The notes under the pieces are model-generated. The model searched no databases, was not told the origin of the DNA, and worked only from the letters and a program-made list of their open reading frames with translations. From NCBI GenBank assembly GCA_025055235.1, contig JANWYN010000023.1, positions 1 to 35,513 on the forward strand: DNA of 35,513 bases, given 5' to 3'. This DNA is from Candidatus Roseilinea sp. Its GTDB lineage: Bacteria; Chloroflexota; Anaerolineae; J036; Brachytrichaceae. The position numbers were made by a program, and so were the translations under genes. This document shows positions 3,753 through 31,957 of this stretch, piece by piece (position 1 is the stretch's first letter; each line of letters starts with the position of its first letter).

Positions 3753-4427
3753 ATGTCTCAGCTCATCGAACTGCTCGACCGGCTGGCGCAGGCGACGGTG
3801 ACGCCGCTGCTCATCCTGTTGGCCGTTTCGGCCGGCGTTGTCGCCGTCGTGCGCAACTGGCGGCTCGCCCTGCCGATGATGGTGTTGCAATACGTGGCGG
3901 TCGGTGTTTTGCTTGCGCGCGTCATCGAACCGAACGTCGCGCTCATCAAGCTACTGGCAGGTGCAATCGTCTGCCTCGCGCTCAGCCTCGCAGCCCAGCG
4001 AAGCGACATCGTGCGTGCCGAACGTGGCGAGTCCATCGCGCGCGAGCGCTTGGCACAGCCGGACTGGCACCGGCTCCCGGCGCAGTTGCTGCTGCGCGCG
4101 ATCGTCGCCATCCTGGTGTTGACGGCGGCTTTCGGCGCGACCATCCGCTTCCCGCTGCCCGGCACCGCGCGCGAGCTGGGCCTGGGCGCATACATGCTGA
4201 TCGGTTTCGGCCTGCTCATCGTGGCGACGGCGTATGAATCGCTCAACGTTGGCCTGGGTTTGTTGATGCTGCTGTCCGGGTTCGAGCTGGCCTACACACC
4301 GCTCGAGCCGAGCATCGGCGTGAGCGTATTGTTGGGTCTAACGACGCTGCTGGTCGGTGCAGCGATCGCCTATTTGACACTCGCAGATGCCGGCGCCACC
4401 GCCGCTGAATTGAAAATTGAAAATTGA
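3753..4427 (+). CDS. Multi-TM protein, possible HyfE/MrpC/NuoK-like subunit
   Basis: Predicted 224-residue integral membrane protein with about seven hydrophobic segments and few polar loops; the only sizeable hydrophilic stretch is about residues 82-108 (RSDIVRAERGESIARERL). The C-terminal third is a run of glycine-rich helices (GLGLLMLLSGFELAYTPLEP) that resembles the NuoK/HyfE group of small antiporter-associated subunits. The next gene encodes a large antiporter-like subunit of the same superfamily, which supports a role in a proton- or sodium-translocating complex. No other complex-I genes are in the window. The last residues (ELKIEN) and the TGA stop are encoded by the AATTGAA heptamer array, so the native C-terminus may have been altered. 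The family call is tentative; membrane location is clear. Confidence 0.6.
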   Translation: MSQLIELLDRLAQATVTPLLILLAVSAGVVAVVRNWRLALPMMVLQYVAVGVLLARVIEPNVALIKLLAGAIVCLALSLAAQRSDIVRAERGESIARERLAQPDWHRLPAQLLLRAIVAILVLTAAFGATIRFPLPGTARELGLGAYMLIGFGLLIVATAYESLNVGLGLLMLLSGFELAYTPLEPSIGVSVLLGLTTLLVGAAIAYLTLADAGATAAELKIEN

Positions 4428-4495
4428 AAAGGAAATGGAAAGTCAGCCCGCTCCCATTCTCAATTCTCAATTTTCAATTCTCAATTTCCAATTCG
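4407..4495. repeat. Heptamer array, two inverted arms
   Basis: The left arm (4407-4431) is a tandem run of AATTGAA-type units; the right arm (4457-4495) is a run of TCAATTC/TCAATTT units in the opposite sense. Both keep a 7-nt period. A spacer of about 25 nt separates them, so the transcript could fold into a long hairpin. The left arm supplies the stop codon of the upstream gene and the right arm ends one base before the next ATG. Confidence 0.85.
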
Positions 4496-4496
4496 C

Positions 4497-6104
4497 ATGA
4501 TTCCTGCCGCGTTGCTCGTGGTGAGCATCCCGCTGGTTGGCGCAGTGCTGGCCTACCTGCTGCGCCGCTGGCAGGGGATCGAGATCGCGGTGGCTGTGCT
4601 CATGTGCGCCGGCGTCGTCGCGCTGTTGGCGCAGCCGCCGGATAGCAAGATTGCGCTGCCAGGCATAGCGGTTGGCATCGAGCTAAGCGCGCCGTTCGAA
4701 GTGTTGGGCCGGGTGTTGCGCGTGCGCGCCGCCGAACGCATTCCGATCCTGCTGCTGTTCGTCTGCGCCGCAGTGTTGTTCGTGTTGTCGTGGCGCGCGC
4801 CGCAGGGGTGGCCGTTCGTCCCCATCGGCCTCGTCGTGTTGGCGGCCGTGAGCCTGGCGTTGATGATTCGCCCGTTTGTCTATGCCGCGCTGGCGTTTGA
4901 AGGTGCAGCGGCGCTGGCAGCGCTGATGATCCAGGCCGAGCGCGGCGGCGAGCGATCCACGCTGGGCGCGCTGCGTTACCTGAGCGCGACCACGCTGGCG
5001 CTGCCGATGTTCCTGTTCGCCGGCTGGTCCATAGACCGCGCCGGCACGGTCAACCTCAACGATGCAGCGGCGCTGGCAGCGGCGTATGGCCCGGCCACTG
5101 TGCTGCTCATCGGCGGCTTCGGGCTGATGATCGGCGCGATCCCGCTCTACACCTGGGTGCACCCTGTGGCGCGCGATGCCTCGCCGCTGGTCACGGCGTT
5201 CATCGCCACGGTGGGCGTGGGGGCGTTGAGCTTCCTGCTCCTCGAGTTCTGGCAAGCCTATGAGTGGTTGCGCGCCGGCGGCCTGGCTGCCGATGCTCTC
5301 GCCATCGGCGGCATCGTGTTGCTCATCTTCGGCGGCGCGCTGGCATGGGCGCAGAAATCGTTCGCGCGCGTGATGGCGTGCGCCATCCTGGTGGAGATCG
5401 GCTGCATCCTGCTCGTCATGAGCCGTGGATCTCAACTCTCCGTGGAAGCGCTGACGTTTGCCACCTTGGCGCGCACGCTTTCGTTGGGCGTCTTCGGCTT
5501 GGGGGTCTGGCGCTTGCGCGTGTTGCGGTCGAGCGATGCATTCGCCGATGTGCGCGGTGCACATGATCTCTGGACAGTGATGGCCCTCGGCGTTGGTGGG
5601 TTGTCATTGGCCGGCCTCCCCGGCACGCTTGGCTTCGTCTCGCGTTGGTCGGCGGCGCGCGCCTATGGCGTCGCCGACGCCGAAGGATTGGCGCTGCTCT
5701 TGGTCGCAAGCGCCAGCGTAGGCGTTGGCGTCATGCGCGGCTTGATCGCCATGTTCGATGCGCCGTGCGTCAAGGTGGTCGAAGAAACGCCGGCCCGTGC
5801 ACAGCAGATGTCCTTGTTTCCGGAGCGCGTTCTGGCCGTCGGCGAGGAAGCCGAAGCAGCAGATGACCCGACAGGCTTCGCGCCGGGTTCAGATGAACCT
5901 CCGTTGCTCGAAGGCGAGACCCTCATCGAGGGCGAGGTGTTGCAGGAGGATGTGCAGCGACCGGTGGCCGCAAAGCTAGATTCGCTCGGCACCCGGTTGA
6001 TGATCGGCGCAGGCATTGCTGCGATCATCATCATCGGCATCTGGCCGGGGATCATCGCGCCGTTGGCCAAAGCTGCCGCTGCGCAATACACCTTTTATCC
6101 ATAG
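4497..6104 (+). CDS. Complex-I/Mrp antiporter-like membrane subunit (NuoN/HyfF type)
   Basis: Predicted 535-residue polytopic membrane protein. The middle (about residues 170-330) follows the proton-conducting transporter domain shared by NuoL/M/N, MrpA/D and HyfF. It includes GFGLMIGAIPLYTWVHPVARDASPLVT in the place of the usual P-x-W-L-P-x-A-H segment, followed by helices with FIATVGVGALSFLLLEFW. LAGLPGTLGFVSRW near residue 370 matches the late NuoN-type helix. Unusual is an acidic, Glu/Pro-rich hydrophilic insert at about residues 420-500, followed by one last TM helix and a short tail. It probably works with the 224-residue protein encoded just upstream; the partner enzyme (dehydrogenase or hydrogenase) is not visible. 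The start is the ATG directly after the heptamer array and has no Shine-Dalgarno sequence. Confidence 0.78.
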   Translation: MIPAALLVVSIPLVGAVLAYLLRRWQGIEIAVAVLMCAGVVALLAQPPDSKIALPGIAVGIELSAPFEVLGRVLRVRAAERIPILLLFVCAAVLFVLSWRAPQGWPFVPIGLVVLAAVSLALMIRPFVYAALAFEGAAALAALMIQAERGGERSTLGALRYLSATTLALPMFLFAGWSIDRAGTVNLNDAAALAAAYGPATVLLIGGFGLMIGAIPLYTWVHPVARDASPLVTAFIATVGVGALSFLLLEFWQAYEWLRAGGLAADALAIGGIVLLIFGGALAWAQKSFARVMACAILVEIGCILLVMSRGSQLSVEALTFATLARTLSLGVFGLGVWRLRVLRSSDAFADVRGAHDLWTVMALGVGGLSLAGLPGTLGFVSRWSAARAYGVADAEGLALLLVASASVGVGVMRGLIAMFDAPCVKVVEETPARAQQMSLFPERVLAVGEEAEAADDPTGFAPGSDEPPLLEGETLIEGEVLQEDVQRPVAAKLDSLGTRLMIGAGIAAIIIIGIWPGIIAPLAKAAAAQYTFYP

Positions 6105-6168
6105 GCGCGTCATCGTCTCCGCGCATGGGCTTGGGATTGCGCTGGACGCTGAGTCACCGGATGCCAAC

Positions 6169-6174
6169 TATAAT
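6169..6174 (+). promoter_or_regulatory. -10 box of alaS, probable short or absent leader
   Basis: A perfect TATAAT ends 10 nt before the ATG at 6185. I see no convincing -35 at 16-18 nt and no Shine-Dalgarno sequence. The box also argues against the longer reading frame that begins at 6125. Confidence 0.55.
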
Positions 6175-6184
6175 CTCCGCTCCG

Positions 6185-8896
<2,712 letters not shown>

Positions 8897-8932
8897 CTGG
8901 CGATTGCCTGCGCCGCGCGAAGCCTTGCCAAG

Positions 8933-10438: not shown

Positions 10439-10442
10439 GCAC

Positions 10443-10526
10443 AATCCCGACTCTCTGCTACCTACTGGGAAGTCGGGAGTGGGGAGTCGGCAATCATCAA
10501 TCATCAATCATCAATCATTAGTCATC
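10443..10526. repeat. Heptamer array between baseplate-J-like gene and ruvX
   Basis: Twelve consecutive 7-nt units can be laid end to end, including AGTCGGG, AGTGGGG, AGTCGGC and then AATCATC three times, AATCATT and AGTCATC. The unit drifts along the array but the phase holds. CCCGACT near the left end pairs with AGTCGGG inside the array. It ends just before the ruvX ATG, leaving no room for a normal Shine-Dalgarno sequence. Confidence 0.85.
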
Positions 10527-10531
10527 AAGCG

Positions 10532-10948
10532 ATGGCGCGCACCCTGGCACTGGACGTAGGCGACCGCCGCATCGGCGTGGCGGTGAGCGACGTAACGAAG
10601 TTGATCGCCCGGCCGCTGTGCGTGATAGACCGCAAGCACGAGGACGCAATCGCGCGCGTCGTCGCGTTGATCGTCGAGCACGGCGCCGACGAGGTGGTGG
10701 TCGGCCTGCCGTTGCACGCCAACGGCAGCGCCGGTGAGCAGGCCCGGCAGGTGCAAGCCTTCGTCGAAGCCTTGCGCGTGCATCTCGAAGTGCCCATCCG
10801 ATGGGTGGACGAGCGCTACACTACCCAGGACGCGAAGCACATCCTCGCCGAGGTGCGTCGGCGCAAACAACCCGATTACGACGACGCGATCGCCGCCGCC
10901 GTCATTTTGCAGCGGTATCTGGATGAGTGGGTAAGGGGTGAGGGGTGA
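10532..10948 (+). CDS. ruvX: Putative pre-16S rRNA nuclease / Holliday junction resolvase-like (YqgF)
   Basis: Predicted 138-residue RNase H-fold protein of the YqgF/RuvX family, which processes the 5' end of 16S rRNA and was earlier proposed as a Holliday junction resolvase. The three acidic catalytic positions are visible: D8 in LALDVGDRRIG, E94 in WVDERYTT and D118 in DYDDAIAAAVILQ. VVVGLPLHANGSAGEQA is the usual substrate-binding loop. The length matches the family. The final codons (VRGEG) and the TGA lie inside the following heptamer array. The baseplate-J-like gene ends 93 nt upstream and mltG starts 92 nt downstream; both gaps are almost wholly array. Confidence 0.95.
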   Translation: MARTLALDVGDRRIGVAVSDVTKLIARPLCVIDRKHEDAIARVVALIVEHGADEVVVGLPLHANGSAGEQARQVQAFVEALRVHLEVPIRWVDERYTTQDAKHILAEVRRRKQPDYDDAIAAAVILQRYLDEWVRGEG

Positions 10949-11039
10949 GTGGTGAGGGACGAGAGGTGAGGGTTGGGGTCGAGTGTTAAGAGGCTATCAT
11001 CAATCATCAATTACCACTTACCACTTACTAACAACGCGA
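10921..11039. repeat. Long heptamer array between ruvX and mltG
   Basis: Seventeen 7-nt units run without losing phase from inside the ruvX 3' end to the base before the mltG start. The left half is GGGGTGA, GGGGTGA, GTGGTGA, GGGACGA, GAGGTGA; the right half is CATCAAT twice, then TACCACT twice and TACTAAC. The sense switches from G/A-rich to C/T-rich, as in the inverted-arm arrays. It provides the ruvX stop codon. Confidence 0.88.
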
Positions 11040-11040
11040 C

Positions 11041-14048: not shown

Positions 14049-15485
14049 CAAGGAGGCGGAGGGAGCGATATGCCGTTCGACCTGGAGACGTGGAAGCGCG
14101 AGGCGGCGGCGAAGCTGGCCCAGTTCAGGCGCACGGCCGCGCAGGCGTCGTCGCACATGACCTACACGACGCTCGCCACGATGACGCTGTGGCCGGTCGT
14201 GGAGGCGATCGGCCGCGGCGACGTATCCGGCGCGATTGGGGCGCTGATGGGCGCGGCAGCCGGCGCGGGCATCATCACCCAGAAGGCGCTCGAGTGGAAA
14301 GGCAAGACCGACGCCGAGATCGCGCGCGAGGCGGCGCAGTGGATCGAACAGGATGCCGTGAATGACTCCGCCCTTCGCCGTGACCTGGACAAGATCATGA
14401 CCGAGCTGCGCGCCGTGGCCCATGCTCAGGCGGGCATGAGTGACGCCGACCGCGCCTAGCTGGTCGAGACCCTGCGCCAAGAGACGGCGCGCATCGGCAG
14501 CAAGCTCGTGATCGAGACGCAGGGCGGCGCGGCGCTGATGAACAGCACCGTCACCGTTGGCCGCGATTTCGTCGGGCGCGACAAGACCACGATCATCAAC
14601 AACTACTGGAGCGCGGGCGGCGCCGAGCGCGACGCCGAATCGCTGCAGGCGCAAATTGACCGCTACCTGAACTGGGTGGTGAACACCTACGGCAAGATCG
14701 CGCTGCGCGGCGTGCAGCGCGCCGGCAGCTCGGTCATCGTGCTCGACCTCGACACGGCCTACGTCCCGCTCGAGGCGACGATCACGCGACCTGCCGAAGA
14801 AAGAAGAAGCCTTGCCACTCACGAAGCGAATCCTGCGCGTCCCGTCGAAGAACGCAAAGGCTTCATCGCCCATGTGATTGACGTGTTGAGACGGATCGGG
14901 TGGCAAAGCCCGGATTGGGACAAGGAAGGGTGCCAAACGACGCCAAGGTGTTTACCGGCGCTGCCGAGACGCTCATCGAAGAGAATCGGGCACATGCGAC
15001 CCCGAGGTGCGCCGCCGGTTGCAATCGCGCTTGCACGCGCTCGTGCGATATGACTTCAAGACCACGACCACGCGCGCCGCGTCGCGCGTCGCGGTCGCCG
15101 AGGCGCTCGCCTGTCTGGGCGACCCGCGCTTCGACCCCAACTACTGGCACCTGCCCGCCGAGCCGGACTTCGGCTTCGTGCGCGTCCCCGCCGGCCCGTT
15201 CCTGATGGGCACGCGGAAGGAAGATATCGGACGCATGAAGCGTGTCTTAGGCTATGAACCTAGAGAGGACAAAATTAACCCGCGCCCTGAGACCTATGTG
15301 GACGAGTTCTGCATCGCCCGTTACCCGGTCACGGTCGCCCAGTTCCGCGCCTTCGTTGCGGATCGCCGCGTTGCTGATCCGGATTTCCGGCTGGCCAACG
15401 AGAATGCCCTGAATGGCCTGCCCACGCATCCTGTAAGTTGGGTCACCTGGCACCAGGCGATGGCGTATTGCAAATGGCTGGAAGA

Positions 15486-15570
15486 GAAGCTGAGAGAACT
15501 GAGAACCAAGAACCAAGATTCAGCTGTCGAACCGCCTTTTCTCAATTCTCAATTCTCAATTTTCAATTTC
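15486..15570. repeat. Heptamer array inside the FGE domain relic
   Basis: Units AGAGAAC, TGAGAAC, CAAGAAC, CAAGATT, CAGCTGT, CGAACCG, CCTTTTC and then TCAATTC twice and TCAATTT twice run in one 7-nt phase. The array separates WLEEKL from LPSEAEWEKA, which are almost adjacent in intact FGE domains, and the downstream part is in the +1 frame. That fits an insertion of 7n bases with n of the form 3k+1. Confidence 0.85.
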
Positions 15571-15621
15571 CTTGCCGAGCGAGGCCGAGTGGGAGAAAGC
15601 CGCGCGCGGCGGCCTACTTCT

Positions 15622-15644
15622 CCCCTCTCCCACTGGGAGAGGGG
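15622..15644. repeat. REP-like hairpin inserted in the FGE relic
   Basis: CCCCTCTCCC and GGGAGAGGGG form a perfect 10-bp stem around ACT, followed by CCGGGGGTGAGGGC. In translation this is the PSPTGRGAGGEG type of peptide that such dispersed palindromes produce. It splits AARGG from the next native segment (ARIFTWEDD) without breaking the frame. Confidence 0.75.
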
Positions 15645-16051
15645 CCGGGGGTGAGGGCGCAAACCCCAACCCCGCCCGCATTTTCACCTGGGAAGACGAC
15701 CAACCCGACCCAGAGAAGGCCAACTGTGCGGATACCGGCATCGGCACGGTCAGCCCGGTCGGTTGCTTCCCGCATGGAGCCAGCCCTTATGGCTGCCAGG
15801 ACATGATTGGCAATATTCAAGAGTGGACGCACAGTCTTTATCGCCGTTATCCTTATAGACGCGATGATGGACGCGAAGAGAGTGAAGCCCGTGTTCTGCG
15901 CGGTGGTGCTTTCAACAATGCCCGATCTGCACGTGTTGCCTTTCGCCATTGGTTACGACCACTTAGCAGACGCGATTACATCGGATTCCGAGTTGCAGTG
16001 CGTTCCTATCTTCTCCGCCCTTCGACATTGGACTCTGGACTCCGGGAATAG

Positions 16052-17541: not shown

Positions 17542-18405
17542 TTACTGCGCGCGCGCAGCGGCTTGGGTCAGGGCGCGCTTGGCCAGCACTTTGGCCAGAT
17601 GCACGCGGTAGTCGCCGCTGGCGAAGCTGTCGCCGATCGGGTTGCTGATGCCGTTGGCAGCCAGCGCAGCCGCGGCGGCGATGTTCTCCGCCGTCGGCGC
17701 CTTGCCGGTCAGCGCGGCTTCAGCGGCCGAGGCGCGCACCGGGTTCGGCGTGGCCCCGCCGATCACCAGGCTGACTTTGCTGCACACGCCGTTGGCGACC
17801 GTGACGACGGCCGACGCGCCGACCACGATGTAGCCGGAGGCGGGGTGCTGCAAATCGGCGTAGGCGCCGCCGGTGCCTTTGCCGTAACCGTTCACCGTCA
17901 CTTCGGTCACGATCTCGTTGGGGGCCAGGGCGGTGGTGAATAGGTCGGTCCAGAAGCCGGCGAAGTCAATCGTGCGCGAGCCGTTGGGGCCGACGGCCGT
18001 AACGCTGCCGCCCAGAGCGAGCAGGTTGGGCGGGTAGTCGGCGGCCGGGTCGGCGTGGACGATGGCGCCGCCGATGGTGCCGCGGTTGCGCACCATCTGG
18101 TCGCCGATCTTGTCGGCAGCCTCGGCCAGCAGCGGGCAGTGCGCCTTCACGTCGGCAGAGGCGGCGATGGCAGCGTGGGTGGTCATCGCGCCGATGCGCA
18201 GCTTGCCGCCCTCGACGCGGATGCCGCTCAGCTCCGGGATGCGGCCGATATCAATCAGCGCGCTGGGCTGCGCCAGGCGGTACTTCATGGCCGGGATGAG
18301 CGAGTGACCGCCGGCCAGGATTTTGGCGTTCTCCTTCGTGCTCAGCAGTTGCACGGCCTCGGCGACCGTCGCCGGCCGGTAGTAGTCGAAGTTCGCTGCA
18401 AACAT
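17542..18405 (-). CDS. FAD-binding medium subunit of a xanthine-dehydrogenase-family enzyme (CoxM-like)
   Basis: Predicted 287-residue flavoprotein subunit that passes electrons from the FeS subunit to an acceptor. FAD-binding signatures are AGGHSLIPAMK (about residues 31-41) and RNRGTIGGAIVHADPAADYP (about 107-126). The C-terminal CO_deh_flav_C domain covers about 175-280. The length is standard. A clear Shine-Dalgarno (GGAGAGACGT before the ATG at 18405) fixes the start. It is the third subunit gene in the order small-large-medium, typical of form II (BMS-type) operons. The four-helix-bundle gene and its heptamer arrays separate it from coxL by about 435 nt. Confidence 0.93.
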   Translation of the reverse strand: MFAANFDYYRPATVAEAVQLLSTKENAKILAGGHSLIPAMKYRLAQPSALIDIGRIPELSGIRVEGGKLRIGAMTTHAAIAASADVKAHCPLLAEAADKIGDQMVRNRGTIGGAIVHADPAADYPPNLLALGGSVTAVGPNGSRTIDFAGFWTDLFTTALAPNEIVTEVTVNGYGKGTGGAYADLQHPASGYIVVGASAVVTVANGVCSKVSLVIGGATPNPVRASAAEAALTGKAPTAENIAAAAALAANGISNPIGDSFASGDYRVHLAKVLAKRALTQAAARAQ

Positions 18406-18421: not shown

Positions 18422-18456
18422 GAAATTGAAAATTGAAAATTGAGAATTGAAAAGAG
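18422..18456. repeat. Heptamer array, left flank of the four-helix-bundle gene
   Basis: GAAATTG, AAAATTG twice, AGAATTG and AAAAGAG run in 7-nt phase. It is the inverted counterpart of the array at 18825-18848 on the other side of the small gene and ends a few bases before that gene's stop codon. Confidence 0.85.
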
Positions 18457-18463: not shown

Positions 18464-18820
18464 TCACTCCTTGCGCGATTTGCGGACGATGGTTGTCAGG
18501 ATCGCGATGATCTCTGAAATCTCCTTCGTCAACGGGGCGAGCAGTTCCGGCTTGACCTGATTCGTCTCGGCCAACAGCCGCAGCCAGAACTTCGTCTCGC
18601 GTGCCTCCTTCAGTGCGATGTTGCATTTCGAGATGAAGTCGGGGCGACTCTGCCCTGCATCTGCTTCTTCGAGGTTGGCACTGATGGATGTTCCGGAATC
18701 CAGCAATTGGTCGCCGAGCCTGCTCGCCGTTGCGCTACCCTTGTTGCACAGATGTTCGTGTAGTTTGACGATGCGGCAGGCAAACTCGAACGTTCGCTGC
18801 TGGATCGGAACCGGCGTCAT
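18464..18820 (-). CDS. Four-helix-bundle protein (S23/IVP family)
   Basis: Predicted 118-residue all-alpha protein of the four-helix-bundle group that includes proteins encoded in 23S rRNA intervening sequences and is related in fold to the Avd accessory protein of diversity-generating retroelements. Family marks are RTFEFACRIVKLHEHL, the helix 2 segment LLDSGTSISANLEEADAG, DFISKCNIALKEARETKFWL and a C-terminal helix with a basic end (RKSRKE). The length is typical. No catalytic residues are known in the family; nucleic-acid binding has been shown for Avd. The gene lies between coxL and coxM on the same strand, flanked on both sides by heptamer arrays in inverted orientation. It therefore looks like a passenger of a roughly 430-nt inserted unit rather than an enzyme subunit. 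Its effect on the operon is unknown. Confidence 0.85.
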   Translation of the reverse strand: MTPVPIQQRTFEFACRIVKLHEHLCNKGSATASRLGDQLLDSGTSISANLEEADAGQSRPDFISKCNIALKEARETKFWLRLLAETNQVKPELLAPLTKEISEIIAILTTIVRKSRKE

Positions 18821-18824
18821 CCTT

Positions 18825-18848
18825 TCTCAATTTTCAATTCTCAATTTC
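18825..18848. repeat. Heptamer array, right flank of the four-helix-bundle gene
   Basis: TCTCAAT, TTTCAAT and TCTCAAT run in 7-nt phase into the end of coxL. On the minus strand the array reads AATTGA, which supplies the coxL TGA stop codon. The purine run GAGAAAGG at its other edge touches the small gene's ATG. Confidence 0.82.
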
Positions 18849-21216: not shown

Positions 21217-21293
21217 TGCAGACATCAGAAGTCAGAACCCAGACGTCAGACCTGAACCGGCCTGGATGCTGGTATCTAGACTCTGGTATCTCA
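21217..21293. repeat. Heptamer array between coxS-like and coxL-like genes
   Basis: Eleven 7-nt units can be read: TGCAGAC, ATCAGAA, GTCAGAA, CCCAGAC, GTCAGAC, CTGAACC, GGCCTGG, ATGCTGG, TATCTAG, ACTCTGG, TATCTCA. CAGA-bearing units on the left face CTGG/TCTG-bearing units on the right, again as inverted arms. It fills the whole spacer between the coxS-like stop and the Shine-Dalgarno sequence of the coxL-like gene. Confidence 0.82.
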
Positions 21294-22577: not shown

Positions 22578-22762
22578 AGGTGGCTTCTCCAGAACTCCCG
22601 CAACAGCCGGCCCGCGCCCCACACTTTGTCCTCGATGCCGTTTTGTAGCCACCCTTCAGCCACCGGCGCGTTCGCTCACCCGCTGGTTGAAAGCGCGGTT
22701 GCCTTCCACATATGGCGACGTGGTGAGCAAGCGGGAAGTGCTGGACTATCTGGCCGGCCCAG

Positions 22763-22825
22763 CGTAAAACGCAAGACGTATCACGCAGGACGTGACACGT
22801 GCCACTTACCCCTTGCCACTACAAT
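22763..22825. repeat. Heptamer array upstream of the PsuG-like gene
   Basis: Nine 7-nt units: CGTAAAA, CGCAAGA, CGTATCA, CGCAGGA, CGTGACA, CGTGCCA, CTTACCC, CTTGCCA, CTACAAT. The first two bases of the unit are conserved across six units. The last unit contains the TACAAT -10 box of the next gene, so the array has become part of its promoter. From 22578 to 22762 I see only a short frame remnant (GDVVSKREVLDYLAGPA then stop). Confidence 0.85.
22820..22825 (+). promoter_or_regulatory. -10 box of the PsuG-like gene
   Basis: TACAAT ends 10 nt before the GTG at 22836 and forms the last unit of the heptamer array. No Shine-Dalgarno sequence follows. Confidence 0.5.
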
Positions 22826-23823: not shown

Positions 23824-23829
23824 TATAAT
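23824..23829 (+). promoter_or_regulatory. -10 box, probable leaderless start of the SDR gene
   Basis: A perfect TATAAT ends 9 nt before the ATG at 23839. There is no Shine-Dalgarno sequence and no clear -35 at the usual distance. Confidence 0.55.
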
Positions 23830-23838
23830 CCTTTCGTC

Positions 23839-24974: not shown

Positions 24975-24978
24975 GCGC

Positions 24979-25647: not shown

Positions 25648-25725
25648 ATCACGTCACTGTTTACATTCACCGAGCGCCAGCCGGCCACCCGCTCGGCTGC
25701 GCGCAACGACGACACACCATCGGGT

Positions 25726-26400: not shown

Positions 26401-26544
26401 GTTAAGTAACCTCTATAAATGCATTGTATTAAGTAAAGTTTAATTTATTGAGAAGAAAAGGTGAAGCAACAGGTAAAGGGGCGCTTAAAGCAGCGTTTAC
26501 TCGAACTTCACATACTCACAGTAACCTCCTAATTGAACTCACAG
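26401..26544 (-). promoter_or_regulatory. AT-rich phoU control region with direct repeats
   Basis: On the minus strand TACAAT (26428-26423) is a -10 candidate. Farther upstream CTGTGAGT occurs twice with a period of 23 nt (plus-strand ACTCACAG at 26514-26521 and 26537-26544), each next to GTTC- or GAAGTTC-like bases. Such spaced direct repeats could bind the response regulator encoded downstream. I cannot match them to a defined Pho box by eye. The remaining bases up to 26620 show nothing else. Confidence 0.4.
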
Positions 26545-26620
26545 CGAAATCATGCCGAGGACAGCGTGCGCCGCTGCAAGCGCTGAAGCTCGGGTCTTGC
26601 CGGGCCACTCCAAGATTGCC

Positions 26621-26860
26621 ATGAACAAGCAATTACTCGATGAAACGATCGCCTACCTCAGAAAAGAGTTGACGAGCATTCATCATGACCTCACTTGGGC
26701 AGATGGGGTGCAAGCTGAGTCCTTCCGCGTGCGTCAAATTCGCCTTCTGGCGGAGTTGGATCGTCTGGAGGCGCTGCGCCGGACTGTAGCGACGCCGATG
26801 GCTGTGCTCACCCCTACATCCACTGCCCAACCGTCCGGCGGCGTTGCCATTGAGCGATAA
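26621..26860 (+). CDS. Small hypothetical protein
   Basis: Predicted 79-residue soluble protein starting MNKQLLDETIAYLRKELTSI. Two amphipathic helices (about residues 2-20 and 26-52, the latter with RVRQIRLLAELDRLEALRR) are followed by a Thr/Pro-rich tail. I do not recognise the family. Codon use resembles the neighbours, and the ATG at 26621 is the first that starts a helix-forming stretch, but there is no Shine-Dalgarno sequence. Its stop codon overlaps the A run of the tRNA-Arg terminator on the other strand. It may be a real small gene; a chance ORF cannot be excluded. Confidence 0.45.
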   Translation: MNKQLLDETIAYLRKELTSIHHDLTWADGVQAESFRVRQIRLLAELDRLEALRRTVATPMAVLTPTSTAQPSGGVAIER

Positions 26861-26903
26861 AAAGACGAAGGGCGAACTTCGATCTGCCAGGAAGTTCGCC
26901 CTT
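26859..26903 (-). terminator. Rho-independent terminator of tRNA-Arg
   Basis: On the minus strand AAGGGCGAACTTC (26903-26891) and GAAGTTCGCCCTT (26880-26868) form a perfect 13-bp stem with a 10-nt loop, followed by CGTC and five T. It begins four bases after the tRNA 3' end. Confidence 0.9.
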
Positions 26904-26907
26904 GTTT

Positions 26908-26978
26908 GCCCCTACGCAGATTCGAACTGCGATCTACGGCTCCGGAGGCCGGCGCTCTATCCATTGAGCTATAGGGGC
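26908..26978 (-). tRNA. tRNA-Arg (CCG)
   Basis: The 71-nt cloverleaf folds completely: acceptor GCCCCTA/TAGGGGC, D-stem GCTC/GAGC, anticodon loop CTCCGGA with anticodon CCG, T-arm CGCAG-TTCGAAT-CTGCG. The outermost anticodon-stem pair is a C-T mismatch. CCA is not encoded. A strong terminator follows directly, so it is transcribed alone. Confidence 0.95.
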
Positions 26979-27024
26979 GAGTCCCCATCCCCGATTGTAG
27001 CAGCGGTCGGGTGCGTGTTCAATA

Positions 27025-27218
27025 GGGTGCATTCGCCAATTCGCCATGCGTGTTCAATAGCCTTCGCCAGCGAGGGCTGTAGGGCGCGCTCTGAATGGCC
27101 TGCATGGGCTACCGCAGCGCGCCGTTGGCAGCGCACACGGGCACGGAAGGAGTCCGGGCACGGAACGGAGTCCGTGCCCTACCGTGCGATGGTTTGCTCT
27201 TATCCGCGAATGCACCCC
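27025..27218. repeat. GGGTGCATTCGC-bounded repeat, copy E (longest)
   Basis: GGGTGCATTCGC (27025-27036) and GCGAATGCACCCC (27206-27218) are perfect inverted ends. The right flank GTGCGATGGTTTGC-TCTTATCC is the inverse of the left flank of copy B. The core has GGGCGCGCTCTGAATGGCC, GGGCTACCGCAGCGCGCC and two CACGG-type hairpins. It lies just upstream of the aspartokinase promoter. Confidence 0.78.
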
Positions 27219-27233
27219 TTCAATAGCGCTGGC

Positions 27234-27239
27234 TATAAT
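27234..27239 (+). promoter_or_regulatory. -10 box of aspartokinase gene
   Basis: A perfect TATAAT lies 26 nt before the ATG at 27266, right after the repeat. The expected leader is about 19 nt. No clear -35. Confidence 0.5.
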
Positions 27240-27265
27240 CTGCGGCGCTTTTTCAACAACGCACC

Positions 27266-28702
27266 ATGTCACTGGCAGTCCTCAAATTCGGCGGCACGTC
27301 CGTCGGCGACGGTGCCGCCATACGCCAAACCGCACAAATCGTCCGCGATGCGACCATGCGCTGGGATCACGTCGTGGTCGTGACATCTGCAATGGGCAAA
27401 TCGGCGGATCCGCGCGACACAATCAAAGTGACCGATGTGCTGCTGAATGCAGCGCGGTCGGCCGCTGCCGGCGACGGCGAGAGTTACCCGCGCGCCCGTC
27501 GCATGCTCGCCGATAAACACCACGCCGCGATCGAAGCAACCATCAGCAACGCCGACGAGCGCCAGCGCATCGGCGAAGAGATTGACCATCTGCTCAGCGG
27601 CTTCGAGATGTTATGCGCCAGCGTGCGCGTGTTGGGCGAAGTCACCCCGCGCGCGCTCGACGCCATCGCCGGCCTCGGCGAGCGCATGGCTGCCCGCATT
27701 CTGGCCGGCGCGATCCGCAGCGTCGGCGTGATGGCCGAGCCGCTCGACGCGACCGACTTCATCGTCACCACCGACCGGTATCAATCGGCGACGCCGCTGA
27801 TGGGGCCAACGCGCGAGCGGACGATCGCCCGGCTGATGCCGCTGTTGAAAGCAGGGGTGACGCCGGTGGTGACCGGCTTCATCGGCGCTACGCCGGCCGG
27901 CGTGCCCACGACGCTCGGGCGCGGCGGCAGCGACTATAGCGCCAGCATCATCGCTGCGGCGCTCGACGCCGATGAGGTCTACAACTACACCGACGTGGAT
28001 GGCGTCTTGACCAGTGACCCGCGCATCGTGCCCGACGCGCGCACCATCGAAGTGTTGACCGCACAAGAGATGAGCGAGATGGCCTATTTCGGCGCATCGG
28101 TGCTGCACCCGATGACGATCGCGCCGCTGGCGGAGAAGAACATCCCCTTGCGGGTGAAGAACACCTTCAACCCGTCGCACCCCGGCACGCTGATCGTGCA
28201 TCGCAGCGACTTGGCGCCGAGCAGCAGCGTGATCAAGGCAGTGACGGCGATCAAAGATGTGAGCATGATGACAGTATCGGGCGGCGGGTTGAAGGGTGTG
28301 CCGGGCATCGCCGGGCGGACGTTCATGGCCGTGGCGCGCACGAACACCAGCGTGCTGATGATCTCGCAGGCGTCGGCCGAGCAGAATATCTGCTTCGTCA
28401 TCCCGAGGACGGCCGCGCCGAGCGTTGCCGCCGAGTTGAGCGCCGAGTTCCGCCGCGAGATGGAGCATGGCGAGATCAACCCGATCGAGACGTTCGACAA
28501 CGCATCCATCATCACCGCCGTCGGCATGGGCATCAGCGAGACGCCCGGCGTCAGCGGTCGGGTGTTCAGCGCATTGGGCGCGCAAAACATCAACGTGTTT
28601 GCCATCGCGCAGGGGTCGTCCGAATGTGCGATCAGCATGATCGTGGCTGCTGACCGCTGCGACGAGGCGGTGCGCGCGGTGCACGCGCTGACCAAGGGCT
28701 GA
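27266..28702 (+). CDS. Aspartate kinase
   Basis: Predicted 478-residue enzyme catalysing the first step from aspartate to lysine, threonine and methionine (aspartyl-4-phosphate formation). The amino-acid kinase domain starts at VLKFGGTSVGDG (about residues 5-16) and includes GFIGATPAGVPTTLGRGGSD, the nucleotide and aspartate site, and YTDVDGVLTSDPR. Two ACT domains follow from about residue 320 (VSMMTVSGGGLKGVPGIAGR; SIITAVGMGISETPGVSGRV), so feedback inhibition by lysine and/or threonine is expected. The length fits the monofunctional class with an extended first domain (lysC/thrA type); a homoserine dehydrogenase part is absent. It is transcribed alone or with the aquaporin gene 95 nt downstream. 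Confidence 0.95.
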   Translation: MSLAVLKFGGTSVGDGAAIRQTAQIVRDATMRWDHVVVVTSAMGKSADPRDTIKVTDVLLNAARSAAAGDGESYPRARRMLADKHHAAIEATISNADERQRIGEEIDHLLSGFEMLCASVRVLGEVTPRALDAIAGLGERMAARILAGAIRSVGVMAEPLDATDFIVTTDRYQSATPLMGPTRERTIARLMPLLKAGVTPVVTGFIGATPAGVPTTLGRGGSDYSASIIAAALDADEVYNYTDVDGVLTSDPRIVPDARTIEVLTAQEMSEMAYFGASVLHPMTIAPLAEKNIPLRVKNTFNPSHPGTLIVHRSDLAPSSSVIKAVTAIKDVSMMTVSGGGLKGVPGIAGRTFMAVARTNTSVLMISQASAEQNICFVIPRTAAPSVAAELSAEFRREMEHGEINPIETFDNASIITAVGMGISETPGVSGRVFSALGAQNINVFAIAQGSSECAISMIVAADRCDEAVRAVHALTKG

Positions 28703-28797
28703 GAGGTCGCCGCCGAGCGCGACACGTCAAAACGCAGGCGGTGTTATCTCTGTCGTCGCAAATCAAAGCAACCAAAGCAGAAGGAGTTTAAGAGCAC

Positions 28798-29532
28798 ATG
28801 ATCAACTGGAAGGCACTTGTCGCCGAGTTCATCGGCACGTTTACACTGGTCTTCATCGGCTCGGCGGCGGTGTGGTTCGCCAAGACTGCGCCGGGCTATG
28901 GGGGCGGTACGCTCGCTCCCGCATTCGCCCACGGCCTCGCCGTTATCTTTGCCGCCTACTCAGTCGGTAAGATCAGCGGCGCACATCTAAACCCGGCTGT
29001 GACGACCGCCATCGCCATCGCCGGCGGCATTGATTGGGCCAAAGCGGGCATGTATATCATCACGCAGATCGTTGCTGCGCTGGTCGCTGCCCTCGTGCTG
29101 AACGGCATGCTGCTGCCGGTGACGCAAAACGGCGTCACCAGCCCCGCTGCGAACTTCTTCGGCGCGTTCAGCTACAACACCGCCGTGACCTCATCCATCG
29201 GCGCACTGTTCACCGAGGCGATCCTGACGTTCTTCCTGGCATTCGTGGTCGTGATGGGCGCGGTCTACGGCAAGGCAGGTGACTTCGCCGGCTTGGCCAT
29301 CGGCCTGACGCTCGTGATGGCCATCATCGGCGGCGGCGGCATCAGCGAGGCCTCGCTCAACCCGGCGCGCTCGATCGGCCCGGCGATCGTGGCCGGCAAT
29401 CTGAGCAACATCTGGATCTACATCATCGGTCCGATCCTCGGCGCAGCCGCTGCTGCTGCCATCGCGCGCTACGTGCTCAATCCGAATGCACCGGAGCGCA
29501 CGCCACCCGCCCGCAACACCGGCCGGCGCTAA
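28798..29532 (+). CDS. Aquaporin (MIP family)
   Basis: Predicted 244-residue channel with six TM helices and two half-helices. The two NPA boxes are intact: SGAHLNPAVT (N near residue 65) and ASLNPARSIGPAI (near 188). RSIG after the second NPA, rather than the RDFG of glycerol facilitators, suggests a water-selective AqpZ-like pore. A slightly longer first extracellular loop (AKTAPGYGGGT) is seen. AAGGAG at 28781-28786 stands 11 nt before the ATG. The basic, Pro-rich C-terminus (PNAPERTPPARNTGRR) is cytoplasmic. A strong hairpin follows the stop. Confidence 0.94.
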   Translation: MINWKALVAEFIGTFTLVFIGSAAVWFAKTAPGYGGGTLAPAFAHGLAVIFAAYSVGKISGAHLNPAVTTAIAIAGGIDWAKAGMYIITQIVAALVAALVLNGMLLPVTQNGVTSPAANFFGAFSYNTAVTSSIGALFTEAILTFFLAFVVVMGAVYGKAGDFAGLAIGLTLVMAIIGGGGISEASLNPARSIGPAIVAGNLSNIWIYIIGPILGAAAAAAIARYVLNPNAPERTPPARNTGRR

Positions 29533-29557
29533 ATCGCATCGCACCCGGTAAACCTCG

Positions 29558-29608
29558 GCCGCGAGGGCGCGCAGACCTGCGATACACTTGGTCGCGCGCC
29601 CTCGCGGC
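29558..29608. terminator. 15-bp perfect hairpin between aquaporin gene and der
   Basis: GCCGCGAGGGCGCGC (29558-29572) pairs perfectly with GCGCGCCCTCGCGGC (29594-29608); TGCTTTT follows. It fits a terminator for the aquaporin transcript. The 21-nt loop contains TACACT (29583-29588), a -10 candidate for der 31 nt before its ATG, so the right arm would be the start of the der leader. Confidence 0.75.
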
Positions 29609-29619
29609 TGCTTTTCCGT

Positions 29620-31152
29620 ATGAAGAAGTCATTCGTTGCGCTCGTCGGTCGCCCCAACGTCGGCAAGAGCACCCTGTTCAACCGGATGATCGGCGAACGC
29701 CTGTCGGTCGTGGACGACCGCCCCGGCACCACGCGCGACCGCATCCAGGCGCCGGTGACGTGGCGCGGCGTCGAGTTCACGCTGGTGGACACCGGCGGCA
29801 TCGAGCCGCTGGAGCCGCTGCGCGGCAAAGACAAGCCGGCGCTCGCCGAAGCGTCGGTGGACTTCGTGCGCGAGATTCGCGAGCAAGCGGAGATCGCCAT
29901 TGCCGAAGCCGATGTGATCGTGTTCACCGTGGACGCGCAAGCCGGTCTGACGGCTGCCGACGAAGCCGTGGCCGAAATCCTGCGCAAGCTGGTCGGCCAA
30001 CGCCAGCGCCAGGGTAAATCCACGCCACCCATCATCGTTGCGGCGAGCAAGGCCGAGGCTCGGGCGCCGCGCGAGGCCAGCGTGGAGTTCTACAAGCTCG
30101 GCCTGGGTGAGGTCTATCCGGTCAGCGGCATCCACGGCAGCGGCGTCGGCGATTTACTCGACGCCATCGTCGCGTCCATCCCGCCCCGGCCGGCCGAAGA
30201 GGAGGCACCGGACGAATCGGTGAAGATCGCGCTCGTCGGTCGCCCCAACGTCGGCAAGTCCTCGCTGTTCAATCGCCTGATCGGCGAGGAGCGGGTGATC
30301 GTGAGCGACGTGCCGGGCACCACGCGCGACGCGATTGACACGCGCATCGAGTTTGTGGAAGGTGAACCGTCGAGCGTGGATCGTGCAGCCCTCGCCGACT
30401 CACGACTTACGACTCACGATCTGCAATTCACGCTCCATGTTCCACGATCTACCCCCGTCACTCTGATAGACACTGCCGGCATTCGTAAACGCGGCAGCAT
30501 CACTCCCGGCGTGGAGAAATGGAGCGTGCTGCGTGCGTTCAAGGCGGTCGAGCGCAGCGACGTGGCCCTGCTGCTGCTCGACGCGACCGAGGGCATCGTC
30601 GCGCAGGACGAACACATCGCCGGCTACATCCTCGATGAGAACAAGGGCGTCGTCGTCGTGGTTAACAAGTGGGACTTGATCGAGAGCGCGGAGAAGGTGG
30701 CGCGCACGGCGAAGCCGGTGGAAGGGCTGGGCTTGCTGACGGCGAAGATGCAAGACTTCTTGAAGCTGGTGCAGGAGCGGCTGAACTTCATGGCCTACGT
30801 GCCGGTGTTGTTCGTCAGCGCCAAGACCGGCTTTCGCACCGACCACATCCTGCCGACCGCCCTGCGTGTGAACGAGGCACGCGCGATGCGCATCTCGACC
30901 AGCGACCTGATGCGCATCGTGCGCGAGGCCAGCGAACGGCACGCTCCGCCAACCCGCGCCGGCAAACGCCTGAAGATCTACATGGCGACGCAAGTCGGCG
31001 TGAATCCGCCCACGTTCGTCTTCCACGTCAACGACGCAGAACTCGTGCATTTCACCTACCAGCGCTTTTTGGAGAACCGGCTGCGCGAAGAGTTCACCTT
31101 CCTCGGCACGCCGATCCGCCTGATCTTCCGCGGGCGGAGGGACGAGCGCTAA
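29620..31152 (+). CDS. der: Ribosome-assembly GTPase Der (EngA)
   Basis: Predicted 510-residue protein with two tandem GTPase domains and a C-terminal KH-like domain; it is essential for 50S subunit maturation in most bacteria. Domain 1: GRPNVGKST (10-18), PGTTRD, DTGG. Its G4 motif reads SKAE (143-146) instead of N-K-x-D. Domain 2: GRPNVGKSS (from about 207), PGTTRD, DTAG and an intact NKWD (349-352). The KH-like end runs to about 505 (KIYMATQVGVNPPTFVFHVN, TPIRLIFRGRRDER). The protein is about 60-70 residues longer than usual. One cause is an insert between the second PGTTRD and DTAG, encoded by a heptamer array, which replaces a short hairpin. Its stop overlaps that of the convergent DUF554 gene. 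Confidence 0.96.
   Translation: MKKSFVALVGRPNVGKSTLFNRMIGERLSVVDDRPGTTRDRIQAPVTWRGVEFTLVDTGGIEPLEPLRGKDKPALAEASVDFVREIREQAEIAIAEADVIVFTVDAQAGLTAADEAVAEILRKLVGQRQRQGKSTPPIIVAASKAEARAPREASVEFYKLGLGEVYPVSGIHGSGVGDLLDAIVASIPPRPAEEEAPDESVKIALVGRPNVGKSSLFNRLIGEERVIVSDVPGTTRDAIDTRIEFVEGEPSSVDRAALADSRLTTHDLQFTLHVPRSTPVTLIDTAGIRKRGSITPGVEKWSVLRAFKAVERSDVALLLLDATEGIVAQDEHIAGYILDENKGVVVVVNKWDLIESAEKVARTAKPVEGLGLLTAKMQDFLKLVQERLNFMAYVPVLFVSAKTGFRTDHILPTALRVNEARAMRISTSDLMRIVREASERHAPPTRAGKRLKIYMATQVGVNPPTFVFHVNDAELVHFTYQRFLENRLREEFTFLGTPIRLIFRGRRDER
30397..30452. repeat. Heptamer array inside der
   Basis: Eight units in phase: GACTCAC, GACTTAC, GACTCAC, GATCTGC, AATTCAC, GCTCCAT, GTTCCAC, GATCTAC. It is translated as residues 260-277 (DSRLTTHDLQFTLHVPRS), within the beta hairpin between the G2 and G3 motifs of the second GTPase domain. 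The reading frame is kept, consistent with a net insertion of a multiple of 21 nt. Confidence 0.82.
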
Positions 31153-31889
31153 GCGAAGCCCGGCAGCCCCAGTGCGCCGAGCACGGCCACGATGGCTGGC
31201 CCGATCGCCAGCGCGGGCAGATAGTTCGCCAGCCGAATCTTCTTCAGGTCGAGCAGGGTGAGACCGATACCGATAATGAGCAGCGCGCCCGTAGCCGACA
31301 ACACGGCCAGCATCGGCGAGGTGAACCAGCCCTGCAACTGGCCGGCCAAGAGCGCGATGCCGCCCTGCACCACGACGATGGTGATGATGGAGAAGCCCAC
31401 GCCGACACCCAGCGAAGCGGCGAAGGCCAGCGCGGCGAAGCCATCGAGTGTGCTCTTGATGGCCAGCAGCGAGTAGTCCCCCTTGAGGCCGTCCTGGATC
31501 GAGCCCAGGATGGTCATCGGCCCGACGCAGAACACCAGGCTGGCGGCGACGTAGCCGCGGATGAAGCGAGCGGTGCTTTCGGCGTCGTCGCTCTTGGCAA
31601 AGCGCCGCTCCAGCGCTGCGCCGAAGCGATGCAACGCGCCGTCAATATCCAGCAGCTCGCCGACGATGCCGCCGAACAAGATGCTGAGCAAGATGACGAT
31701 GAACTTGAACGGCACGTTCTGCTGGTCGGCCATCGCATCCACCACGTTGAGGACGGCGTAGCCAATGGTGCTCAGGCCGAGGCCGGTGAGCACCGTCTCG
31801 CGCATCCGCTCCGGCAGGCGATTGCCCAGCATCACGCCCAACGCCGTGCCGATCAGCACCGTGATGACGTTGAGGATCGTGCCGACCAT
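31149..31889 (-). CDS. DUF554 family membrane protein
   Basis: Predicted 246-residue integral membrane protein of the DUF554 (YdfK-like) family, possibly a transporter; the substrate is unknown. Family marks are MVGTILNVITVLIGTALGVMLG at the start (read as two blocks), ILFGGIVGELLDID, FCVGPMTILGSIQDGL and LTLLDLKKIRLANYLPAL near the end. Six to seven TM segments, glycine-rich. A hydrophilic loop at about residues 85-108 carries FGAALERRFAKSDDAEST. The start at 31889 is followed upstream by the heptamer array, which leaves no normal Shine-Dalgarno. It may be cotranscribed with xseB. Its stop shares bases with the stop of der. Confidence 0.9.
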   Translation of the reverse strand: MVGTILNVITVLIGTALGVMLGNRLPERMRETVLTGLGLSTIGYAVLNVVDAMADQQNVPFKFIVILLSILFGGIVGELLDIDGALHRFGAALERRFAKSDDAESTARFIRGYVAASLVFCVGPMTILGSIQDGLKGDYSLLAIKSTLDGFAALAFAASLGVGVGFSIITIVVVQGGIALLAGQLQGWFTSPMLAVLSATGALLIIGIGLTLLDLKKIRLANYLPALAIGPAIVAVLGALGLPGFA

Positions 31890-31895
31890 CGTCGA

Positions 31896-31957
31896 GTTGG
31901 AGATTGGAGATTAGAGATTGCAATCCCCAATCGCTAATCTCTAATCTCTGATCTCCC
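31896..31957. repeat. Heptamer array folding as a hairpin between xseB and DUF554 gene
   Basis: GATTGGA, GATTAGA, GATTGCA, ATCCCCA, ATCGCTA, ATCTCTA, ATCTCTG and ATCTCCC are in one phase. The left arm (31899-31919) and the right arm (31936-31956) are complementary at about 19 of 21 positions. The right arm encodes the last residues (REIRD) and the TAG stop of xseB on the minus strand. Confidence 0.88.

What the first reader, a model, noticed from the sequence alone, without database searches (positions are those of the whole stretch)
4407..31957. A family of intergenic arrays with strict 7-nt period but a different unit at each locus
At about ten loci (4407-4495, 10443-10526, 10921-11039, 15486-15570, 16021-16048, 18422-18456 with 18825-18848, 21217-21293, 22763-22825, 30397-30452, 31896-31957) consecutive heptamers can be read without loss of phase for up to about 119 nt. 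Units differ between loci (AATTGAA, AATCATC, GGGGTGA, CAGAxxx, CGTGACA, GACTCAC, GATTAGA). Usually two bases per unit stay fixed while the rest drifts. Heptameric short tandem repeats (STRRs) are known from cyanobacteria. A family that keeps only the period and freely changes the word, often switching to its complement in mid-array, does not look like simple slippage of one unit. It suggests a dedicated process that copies or templates 7-nt steps.
Basis: partly seen in the sequence, partly recalled or inferred. Interest (0 to 1): 0.82.

Follow-up and report, generated by a model that had tools for sequence, protein, structure and literature searches.

The report
Seven-base repeat arrays across one genome
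This uncultured bacterium carries many short arrays built of seven-base units, some arranged as hairpins and some read in frame inside essential genes; they look like an unusually rich case of a known kind of bacterial simple repeat, and they offer a good system for asking why the step is seven.

Summary
All 11 stretches named hold lag-7 runs (scores 16.9-46.5); the window has 14 runs at score 16 or more against a mean of 0.25 in 100 shuffles. The excess is genome-wide (66 runs in 336 kb of G000, 102 in 660 kb of sister G006) and peaks at period 7. The genus is Candidatus Roseilinea (Chloroflexota).

Words are not free: 141 loci share words 28 times more often than chance, in about seven families (AATTGAG, GGAGATT, AAGACGC, AGAAGTC, GGGAGTC, GATGATT, CAGGTTA). 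The complement switch is a hairpin-type inversion: 39 of 43 neighbouring pairs of runs. 45 of 168 runs lie in called genes. Between G000 and G006, 14 of 28 orthologous loci keep the word, 5 have a near one, 4 differ, 5 have none; unit drift looks like ordinary mutation.

Best reading: heptanucleotide simple repeats growing by slippage, partly on inherited palindromic seeds. Nothing requires a dedicated 7-nt copying machine, but shared words and in-place word swaps are not fully explained.

The parts
4408..4430 (.). left arm, (AATTGAA)3; overlaps the 3' end of ORF 3753-4427 and supplies its last codons and stop
   Evidence: lag-7 score 22.0; peptide ELKIEN*
4454..4497 (.). right arm, TTCTCAA/TTTTCAA units, complementary to the left arm; reaches the start of ORF 4497-6104 (Pfam Proton_antipo_M)
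   Evidence: score 32.3; single-strand fold z -3.55
10445..10490 (.). GGGAGTC-family hairpin (CCCGACT...AGTCGGGAGTGGGGAGTCGG) between the baseplate-J-like ORF and ruvX
   Evidence: fold z -3.36 for 10440-10531; related hairpins at the same site in G006, G001, G008 (by eye)
10491..10527 (.). ATCATCA array of about 5 units just before ruvX; single-copy sequence in G006
   Evidence: run 10464-10527 score 46.5
10929..11030 (.). GGGGTGA-type arm (overlapping the end of ruvX) and CATCAAT/TACCACT arm before mltG
   Evidence: scores 29.9 and 27.9; fold z -1.62 only
15494..15571 (.). GAGAACC/AAGAACC arm and TTCTCAA arm inside an FGE-sulfatase-like gene; open through in G006, the G000 gene is split between frames at this point
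   Evidence: scores 19.6 and 30.4; (net 7 nt difference); fold z -0.35
16013..16045 (.). weak heptad run at the 3' end of the FGE-like ORF 15572-16051
   Evidence: score 17.1
18423..18453 (.). AAATTGA array upstream of the minus-strand FAD_binding_5 gene (17542-18405); array also present in G006
   Evidence: score 27.7
18820..18846 (.). CTCAATT array between the 23S rRNA IVP-like gene and the molybdopterin dehydrogenase gene; array also present in G006
   Evidence: score 16.9
21219..21293 (.). CAGAxxx array and a possible inverted counterpart (by eye) between two minus-strand genes; G006 has only 10 nt (TTCTCAATTC) there
   Evidence: run 21219-21255 score 17.3; (81 nt against 10 nt); fold z +0.23
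22761..22820 (.). CGTAAAA/CGCAAGA then CGTGCCA-type array upstream of the indigoidine-synthase-A-like gene
   Evidence: score 22.4; fold z -2.69
30396..30452 (.). CGACTCA array inside der, in frame; a 21-nt gap (3 units) stands at this place in G006, G005, G002, G003, G001 and G004, a longer one in G007
   Evidence: score 20.9; no fold (z +1.53)
31897..31955 (.). GGAGATT hairpin upstream of the minus-strand DUF554 gene; arrays of this word also in G006
   Evidence: score 39.6; fold z -7.50

Best explanation
These are heptanucleotide long simple-sequence repeats, the 7-nt class of the LSSR/STRR phenomenon, present at very high density in some Candidatus Roseilinea species. A locus starts from a short seed, in a good part of the cases a palindrome. 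Units are gained and lost by replication slippage in a 7-nt register, helped by hairpin formation on single-stranded template (inferred), and then decay by ordinary point mutation. The words fall into about seven families that are largely inherited; in the best-sampled families the inverted pairs have one fixed orientation, so those families probably descend from dispersed palindromes (inferred). Arrays persist where they do no harm: between genes and in variable loops of proteins, where 7-nt steps survive only as in-frame combinations without stops. Shown: period peak, shared vocabulary, inversion of neighbours, arm complementarity, coding copies, retention of words in orthologs, whole-unit length differences at some loci. 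Inferred: slippage as the motor, hairpin assistance, seed dispersal.
For: Lag 7 stands out. Vocabulary: 75 necklaces in 141 loci, pair sharing 0.0356 against 0.0012 expected; GAGAATT class 22 of 141. Neighbouring runs within 40 nt: 39 pairs of opposite, 4 of the same purine orientation, among 289 runs >=11; 24 of 43 pairs of arms are >=75% complementary against mean 5.6 (maximum 11 in 50 re-pairings) when arms are re-paired between loci. Orientation: AATTGAG 11:0 and GGAGATT 11:0 purine-rich arm first; GGGAGTC mostly the reverse, 2:6, AAGACGC 2:4. Orthologs: 14 of 28 same word (null mean 2.8). Whole-unit differences: 42 nt in the amidohydrolase gene, 21 nt in der, ATCATCA before ruvX. Drift: Ts/Tv 1.41 in arrays against 2.28 genome divergence.
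Against: Inverted pairs of separate runs take in at most 78 of 289 runs (hairpins inside one run are not counted there), so a palindrome is not general. Arm lengths of pairs are not correlated (Spearman -0.11, n = 43). Only 2 of 16 intergenic length differences between orthologous loci are multiples of 7. Some arrays occupy the same length as unrelated or non-repeat sequence in relatives (purL site 2; L018 2559, 124 against 126 nt; MurD-like gene against G003), which slippage alone does not give. In the purL loop G000 and G006 carry hairpins of different words. Shared words, and the variants AATGAAG/AATGCAG in 8 of 10 two-substitution units, are not explained by local slippage. Four of ten loci folded show no or weak fold.
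Confidence: 0.55

Rival explanations
1. Mobile palindromic elements (REP- or Rickettsia-palindromic-element-like) whose arms happen to be heptad arrays; a transposase in trans spreads the hairpins, including in frame into genes.
For: Shared words and shared double variants, fixed orientation in two families, coding copies, different hairpins in the same purL loop, partial AAAGG...CCTTT apex in AATTGAG hairpins. Array-rich G000, G004, G006 have 2, 3, 4 Y1_Tnp matches; the six other congeners 0-1.
Against: Apart from the weak AAAGG no shared flank is seen beyond the arrays; no target-site duplication was noticed by eye, though none was searched for systematically; of 12 Y1 matches 4 were looked at, and 2 of these have runs >=14 within the 1.5-kb flanks, more than 1 kb away; of three Y1 ORFs read, two look like ordinary IS200-type TnpA and one (G004) like a REP-associated transposase (recalled likeness, not scanned); half of the compared loci keep their word; genome size may explain the Y1 trend (n = 9).
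Confidence: 0.2
2. A dedicated process copies or templates 7-nt steps and installs words from a genome-wide vocabulary, overwriting loci without changing length (extension of the first reader's reading).
For: Equal-length replacements, word swaps in place (purL, carB-like gene, 21219 intergenic region), vocabulary sharing.
Against: Half of the orthologous loci keep their word and 5 more a near one; unit drift has an ordinary spectrum; no RVT_1 in G006; equal length can also be decay of an old array in the other species, as several G006 intervals still show degenerate heptads.
Confidence: 0.09
3. The heptads are binding-site arrays for a multimeric DNA- or RNA-binding protein and are kept by selection, as proposed for TAACTGA repeats in Beggiatoaceae.
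For: Few words, strict spacing, RRRRRYY pattern in 80 of 168 runs against 10% expected; many arrays abut gene ends.
Against: No preference for start codons beyond chance (31% within 20 nt against 36% in random placement); copies lie inside housekeeping genes; arrays are lost or changed between sister species at 9 of 28 loci; low density in several congeners.
Confidence: 0.08
4. Purely local slippage from random seeds, no shared ancestry between loci.
For: Seed-like copies visible in some orthologs (ATCATCA, CTGCGTC, GATGATT).
Against: 28-fold word sharing; 22:0 orientation in the two best-sampled families.
Confidence: 0.07

Closest known systems
Heptanucleotide long simple-sequence repeats (LSSR; Mrazek et al. 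2007, not seen, known here only as cited in PMC4679880 and PMC4692102)
   Same: Period 7 is the commonest long unit in most genomes of that study; scattered between taxa; slippage with a 7-nt polymerase contact was proposed (passages of PMC4679880; PMC4692102 discussion).
   Different: Here several words coexist in one genome at roughly 15-20 runs per 100 kb, many in inverted pairs, with copies inside housekeeping genes.
GGGAATC repeats of Xanthomonas and GGGGA(C/T)T repeats of Nostoc (PMC4692102: passages, section 10 and discussion read)
   Same: Heptads, about 90% intergenic in Xanthomonas; 70 cases of two convergent inverted sites among 186 patterns in X. campestris; mostly between co-directional genes and closer to the upstream gene; both words have the RRRRRYY pattern (my reading).
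   Different: One word per organism, able to form G-quadruplexes; here about seven families, mostly without G-tracts.
TAACTGA direct repeats of Beggiatoaceae (PMC4679880: abstract and passages read)
   Same: Heptads next to genes, 36 of 169 sets split by related 7-mers, some inside ORFs.
   Different: One word, mostly just upstream of start codons, one 'indirect' repeat in the genome; here inversion is the rule among neighbouring runs and start codons are not preferred.
Cyanobacterial STRR heptamers (recalled; Calothrix case mentioned in a passage of PMC4692102)
   Same: Several heptamer words in one genome.
   Different: Hairpin arrangement and coding copies not compared here.
REPs, GTAG- and CGTC-tagged palindromes (PMC3733652: abstract read)
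   Same: Dispersed palindromes, mostly between co-directional or convergent genes, sometimes in genes.
   Different: REPs are 20-40 bp; heptad arms are not described in the abstract; tags and a transposase link are not shown here.
Rickettsia palindromic elements (recalled)
   Same: Palindromes read in frame inside protein genes.
   Different: No heptad period known to me; not tested here.
Borg tandem repeats (PMC9879509: passages read)
   Same: Rapidly evolving repeats that add peptide repeats to proteins.
   Different: Units inside Borg ORFs are divisible by three; here the unit is 7 nt, so peptides repeat every 7 residues (21 nt).

Membership tests
Heptanucleotide LSSR | Tandem 5-11-nt units beyond chance, 7 nt the dominant period | tested here: met
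Heptanucleotide LSSR | Mainly intergenic | tested here: met
   of 168 runs 115 intergenic, 45 inside called genes, 8 at stretch edges; own simple gene caller
Heptanucleotide LSSR | Unit-number change by slippage of the resident unit | tested here: inconclusive
   whole-unit differences at amidohydrolase (42 nt) and der (21 nt); 2 of 16 intergenic length differences are multiples of 7
Heptanucleotide LSSR | Patchy distribution between relatives | tested here: met
   0 to about 20 runs per 100 kb among congeners, small samples for most; AATTGAG-N7-AATTGAG 0 to 101 per genome
REP / RAYT system | Short palindrome with GTAG or CGTC tag | not tested
   no tag search was made; the AAGACGC family contains CGTC on one strand (seen by eye)
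REP / RAYT system | Cognate Y1 transposase flanked by the palindrome | tested here: inconclusive
   Y1_Tnp in 6 of 9 genomes, 12 matches; 4 of 12 looked at, runs >=14 near 2 of the 4, more than 1 kb away
Diversity-generating or other reverse-transcriptase system | Reverse transcriptase present in array-rich genomes | tested here: not met
   RVT_1: 2 matches in G000, 1 in G004, none in array-rich G006
Known structured RNA families | Rfam match at the arrays | tested here: not met
   only two tRNAs in the window at gathering scores
TAACTGA-type translational elements | Start-codon proximity | tested here: not met
   37 of 118 (31%) within 20 nt of a start, 36% in random placement

The most novel reading that the evidence does not exclude
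Array-rich Roseilinea carry a trans-acting copying activity that draws on a genome-wide vocabulary of 7-nt words: it writes word arrays and their inverted arms into intergenic regions and protein loops, sometimes at unchanged length, and can exchange one word for another at the same site (purL loop: GGAGATT in G000, AAGACGC in G006, ATGGCGG in G004).
Probability: 0.12. Interest if true: 0.88.

Novelty: new variant of a known kind. Interest (0 to 1): 0.55.

Why it matters
Why seven is the favoured unit of long bacterial repeats is unexplained in the papers I saw; they cite a polymerase-contact idea from 2007. One genus holds sister species with 0 to 101 matches of the same word pattern, so genes and mutation patterns of rich and poor species can be compared. 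The coding copies show a repeat whose unit breaks the reading frame being kept in housekeeping genes (purL, der, MurD-like, FtsW-like, photolyase), with peptides such as GDWRLEI and NSQFSIL. Annotators and assemblers should expect such arrays at gene ends and as in-frame inserts.

Tried and rejected
Transition-tolerant (wobble) copying: suggested by the RRRRRYY excess and an array Ts/Tv of 1.41 against 0.47 for background pairs; rejected because orthologous divergence is 2.28 (1.59 intergenic).

Start-codon element: the window suggested it; not borne out in the larger sample.

Concerted growth of both arms: not supported, Spearman -0.11, although single loci (ruvX upstream, G002 against G005 and G006 against G008, by eye) suggest copying between arms.

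Reverse-transcriptase origin: not supported. Transcription terminators: 12 runs in 30.8 kb of convergent, 15 in 35.0 kb of divergent, 88 in 89.2 kb of co-directional intergenic sequence. Assembly artefact: rejected, G006 is one contig and several assemblies agree.

Sharing of words with other phyla: tblastn of two typed heptapeptide repeats against plasmids gave 3 records for one and none for the other; the one region read holds (TGGCGAT)17, a different word without inverted arm, and the record has no GGAGATT trimer. The other two records were not looked at. (AATTGAG)3 occurs in 12 of 298 genomes of the class.

In print: searches, of which I saw the listed rows only, showed no report of heptad arrays in Roseilinea or Chloroflexota; most subscription papers are not held. 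PMC8446752 (a Roseilinea genome) has no occurrence of 'repeat' in its main text.


Full report
What was checked. The window (64% G+C) is contig C91 of a 3.99-Mb, 151-contig genome. Its mltG protein finds as nearest named records Candidatus Roseilinea sp. NK_OTU-006 and other Anaerolineae/Thermoflexales assemblies at 92-94% identity; the NK_OTU-006 contig has the length of contig C2 of G001 (161,118 bases), a genome labelled same genus. So the genus is Roseilinea (Chloroflexota). I scored runs of identity at lag 7 with a log-odds segment method (written).

Extent. In 335,520 bases of the own genome there are 66 runs >=16, in 660,000 bases of the single-contig sister G006 102. Extrapolated, that is roughly 700-800 runs per genome. 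Among intergenic runs, lag 7 gives 45 and 77; lags 5, 8, 10, 11 and 13 give 0-4; lags 6, 9, 12, 15, 18, which carry codon rhythm from gene remnants and missed genes, 3-13; lags 14 and 21 follow lag 7. Other genomes, many from one stretch of 20 kb or less, range from 0 to 25 per 100 kb, with one small sample (G021, 8.6 kb) at 69. The pattern AATTGAG-N7-AATTGAG counts 101 in G000, 93 in G004, 80 in G006, 20 in G002, 9 in G008, 8 in G001, 4 in G005, 1 in G003 and 0 in G007, reversed control 0. The exact word three times over is in 12 of 298 genomes of the class.

Words. The merged 141 loci of G000 and G006 use 75 consensus necklaces, but two random loci share one 28 times more often than expected from intergenic heptamers; GAGAATT (=AATTGAG) alone has 22 loci. 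Nearly half of the runs (80 of 168) have the purine/pyrimidine pattern RRRRRYY, expected in 10%; this partly reflects the few dominant families. In AATTGAG arrays 8 of 10 two-substitution units are AATGAAG or AATGCAG. Both remove the TGA that an array of this word meets once per three units; in several coding copies such a variant stands where the frame would meet the stop (by eye: ELRIEN-EALRK, ELKIEN-AKLK, KLKIEN-EKLK). This is an observation, not a test. Genera further away show other words, e.g. AAGTGCT, AACGAGT, AATTACG.

Hairpins. Of 43 pairs of runs within 40 nt (among 289 runs >=11), 39 have opposite purine orientation (32 purine-rich arm first, 7 the reverse) and 4 the same. So separate inverted runs take in at most 78 of 289 runs; hairpins inside one run, such as 31897-31955, are not in that count. 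By exact families, AATTGAG 11:0 and GGAGATT 11:0 are purine-rich first, GGGAGTC 2:6, AAGACGC 2:4. Arms complement each other within a locus in 24 of 43 pairs against 5.6 when re-paired; with a stricter 11-mer test 21 of 129 runs have a partner within 100 nt against 3.0. Ten loci were folded as single strands, eight of the window and two picked elsewhere because they looked like hairpins; six have z of -2.69 or lower, the best -7.5 and -8.7; 10921-11039, 15486-15571, 21217-21293 and 30396-30452 do not stand out. Arm lengths are not correlated.

Position. By my own simple codon-based gene caller (727 genes; starts uncertain), 88 runs lie between co-directional genes, 15 divergent, 12 convergent, 45 inside genes and 8 at stretch edges. 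Runs lie near stop codons (69 of 112, 62%, within 20 nt; 47% in random placement), not specially near starts (37 of 118, 31%, against 36%).

Coding copies. Of the 45 runs in called genes, 3 supply the gene's own end and 42 lie in frames that stay open past them; that they are open follows from the way genes were called, and a few are G+C-rich stretches that may be ordinary coding sequence. Clear cases give peptides of period seven: NSQFSIL, GDWRLEI/SPISNLQ, RSQRSEV, TQDARRR. Genes identified by Pfam: Der, a Mur ligase like MurD, an FtsW/penicillin-binding fusion, PurL, an amidohydrolase, a photolyase, FGE-sulfatase; the CarB-like gene is my recognition of the sequence and was not scanned. Alignments to congeners place the arrays in variable stretches. 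Der: a 21-nt gap at the array in six congeners, a longer one in G007. PurL: different hairpins at the same loop in G000, G006 and G004, none in G002 and G005; a second PurL site has equal length with and without the array. MurD-like gene: arrays in G000, G006, G004 at the same total length as the non-repeat G003 sequence, with a 12-nt gap in G005, G001, G008. In the FGE-like gene G006 is open through the array while the window gene changes frame there.

Orthologous turnover. Of 54 G000 loci, 28 had both flanks in the G006 stretches held; some stretches were fetched because genes with arrays had been placed there, so coding loci (12 of 28) are over-represented. 17 of 28 have a run >=14 in G006, 11 do not. 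With a lower threshold in G006, the word is the same (<=1 difference) in 14, near in 5, different in 4, absent in 5; re-paired null for 'same' 2.8, maximum 8 in 500. One of the 4 'different' (10464) comes from a mixed locus where the GGGAGTC hairpin is in fact present in both (by eye). Upstream of ruvX the gap is 2 nt in G007, 19 in G003 and 50-98 in G000, G001, G002, G005, G006, G008 (no data for G004), with AATTGAG hairpins in G005 and G002 and GGGAGTC-type hairpins in G000, G006, G001, G008.

Reading. Period, vocabulary, inversion and inheritance together fit heptanucleotide simple repeats grown partly on inherited palindromic seeds. Slippage is seen only through its result (whole-unit differences at some loci). 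What remains unexplained is the sharing of words and variants across loci, occasional word swaps and equal-length replacement; dispersal of palindromes or copying in trans could account for it. Y1 transposase counts follow array density loosely, but genome size does too and n is 9.

Relation to the literature. Heptads as the commonest long repeat and the polymerase-contact idea are in print (passages). The Xanthomonas GGGAATC case is the nearest: mostly intergenic heptads with 70 convergent inverted pairs among 186 patterns in X. campestris (section read). In the listed rows of six searches of a library that lacks most subscription journals I saw no report of a many-word, partly hairpin, partly coding heptad population, nor of heptads in this genus.

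Noticed in passing
window 32362-32454 (+): Rfam selenocysteine tRNA (73 bits, gathering 47), just before a DUF6930/ST7-like ORF.
   Followed up: no
window 15043-16051: FGE-sulfatase-like gene split between two frames at a heptad array; in G006 one ORF covers both parts and also has a NACHT match.
   Followed up: partly
window 18464-18820 (-): 23S rRNA intervening-sequence-protein-like gene lying between molybdopterin dehydrogenase subunit genes, with heptad arrays on both sides.
   Followed up: no
L192 (G008) against L187 (G006), FtsW-like gene: G008 carries a tract around the GGAGATT array that resembles G006 including near flanks, whereas G001, otherwise like G008, does not: possible homologous recombination between species (by eye).
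   Followed up: no
G008:C1:746406-747951: der matches in several pieces and frames with stops in G008, perhaps sequencing indels of that assembly.
   Followed up: no
L018 about 880-1173: About 215 nt extra in G000 against G006 beside an array, with GGGGCA...TGCCCC near its ends; could be a miniature insertion element (by eye).
   Followed up: no
L206 19989-20106 (Photobacterium sp. DA100 plasmid): (TGGCGAT)17, a long pure heptad array.
   Followed up: partly
L062 7700-7782, L063 8384-8466: Heptad runs, one with an inverted TTAGGAATT partner, in Patescibacteria contigs.
   Followed up: no
G121, G181 (other families of the class): (AATTGAG)3 also matches 13 and 17 times there; the 13 places listed for G181 lie in one array (capped list).
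   Followed up: no
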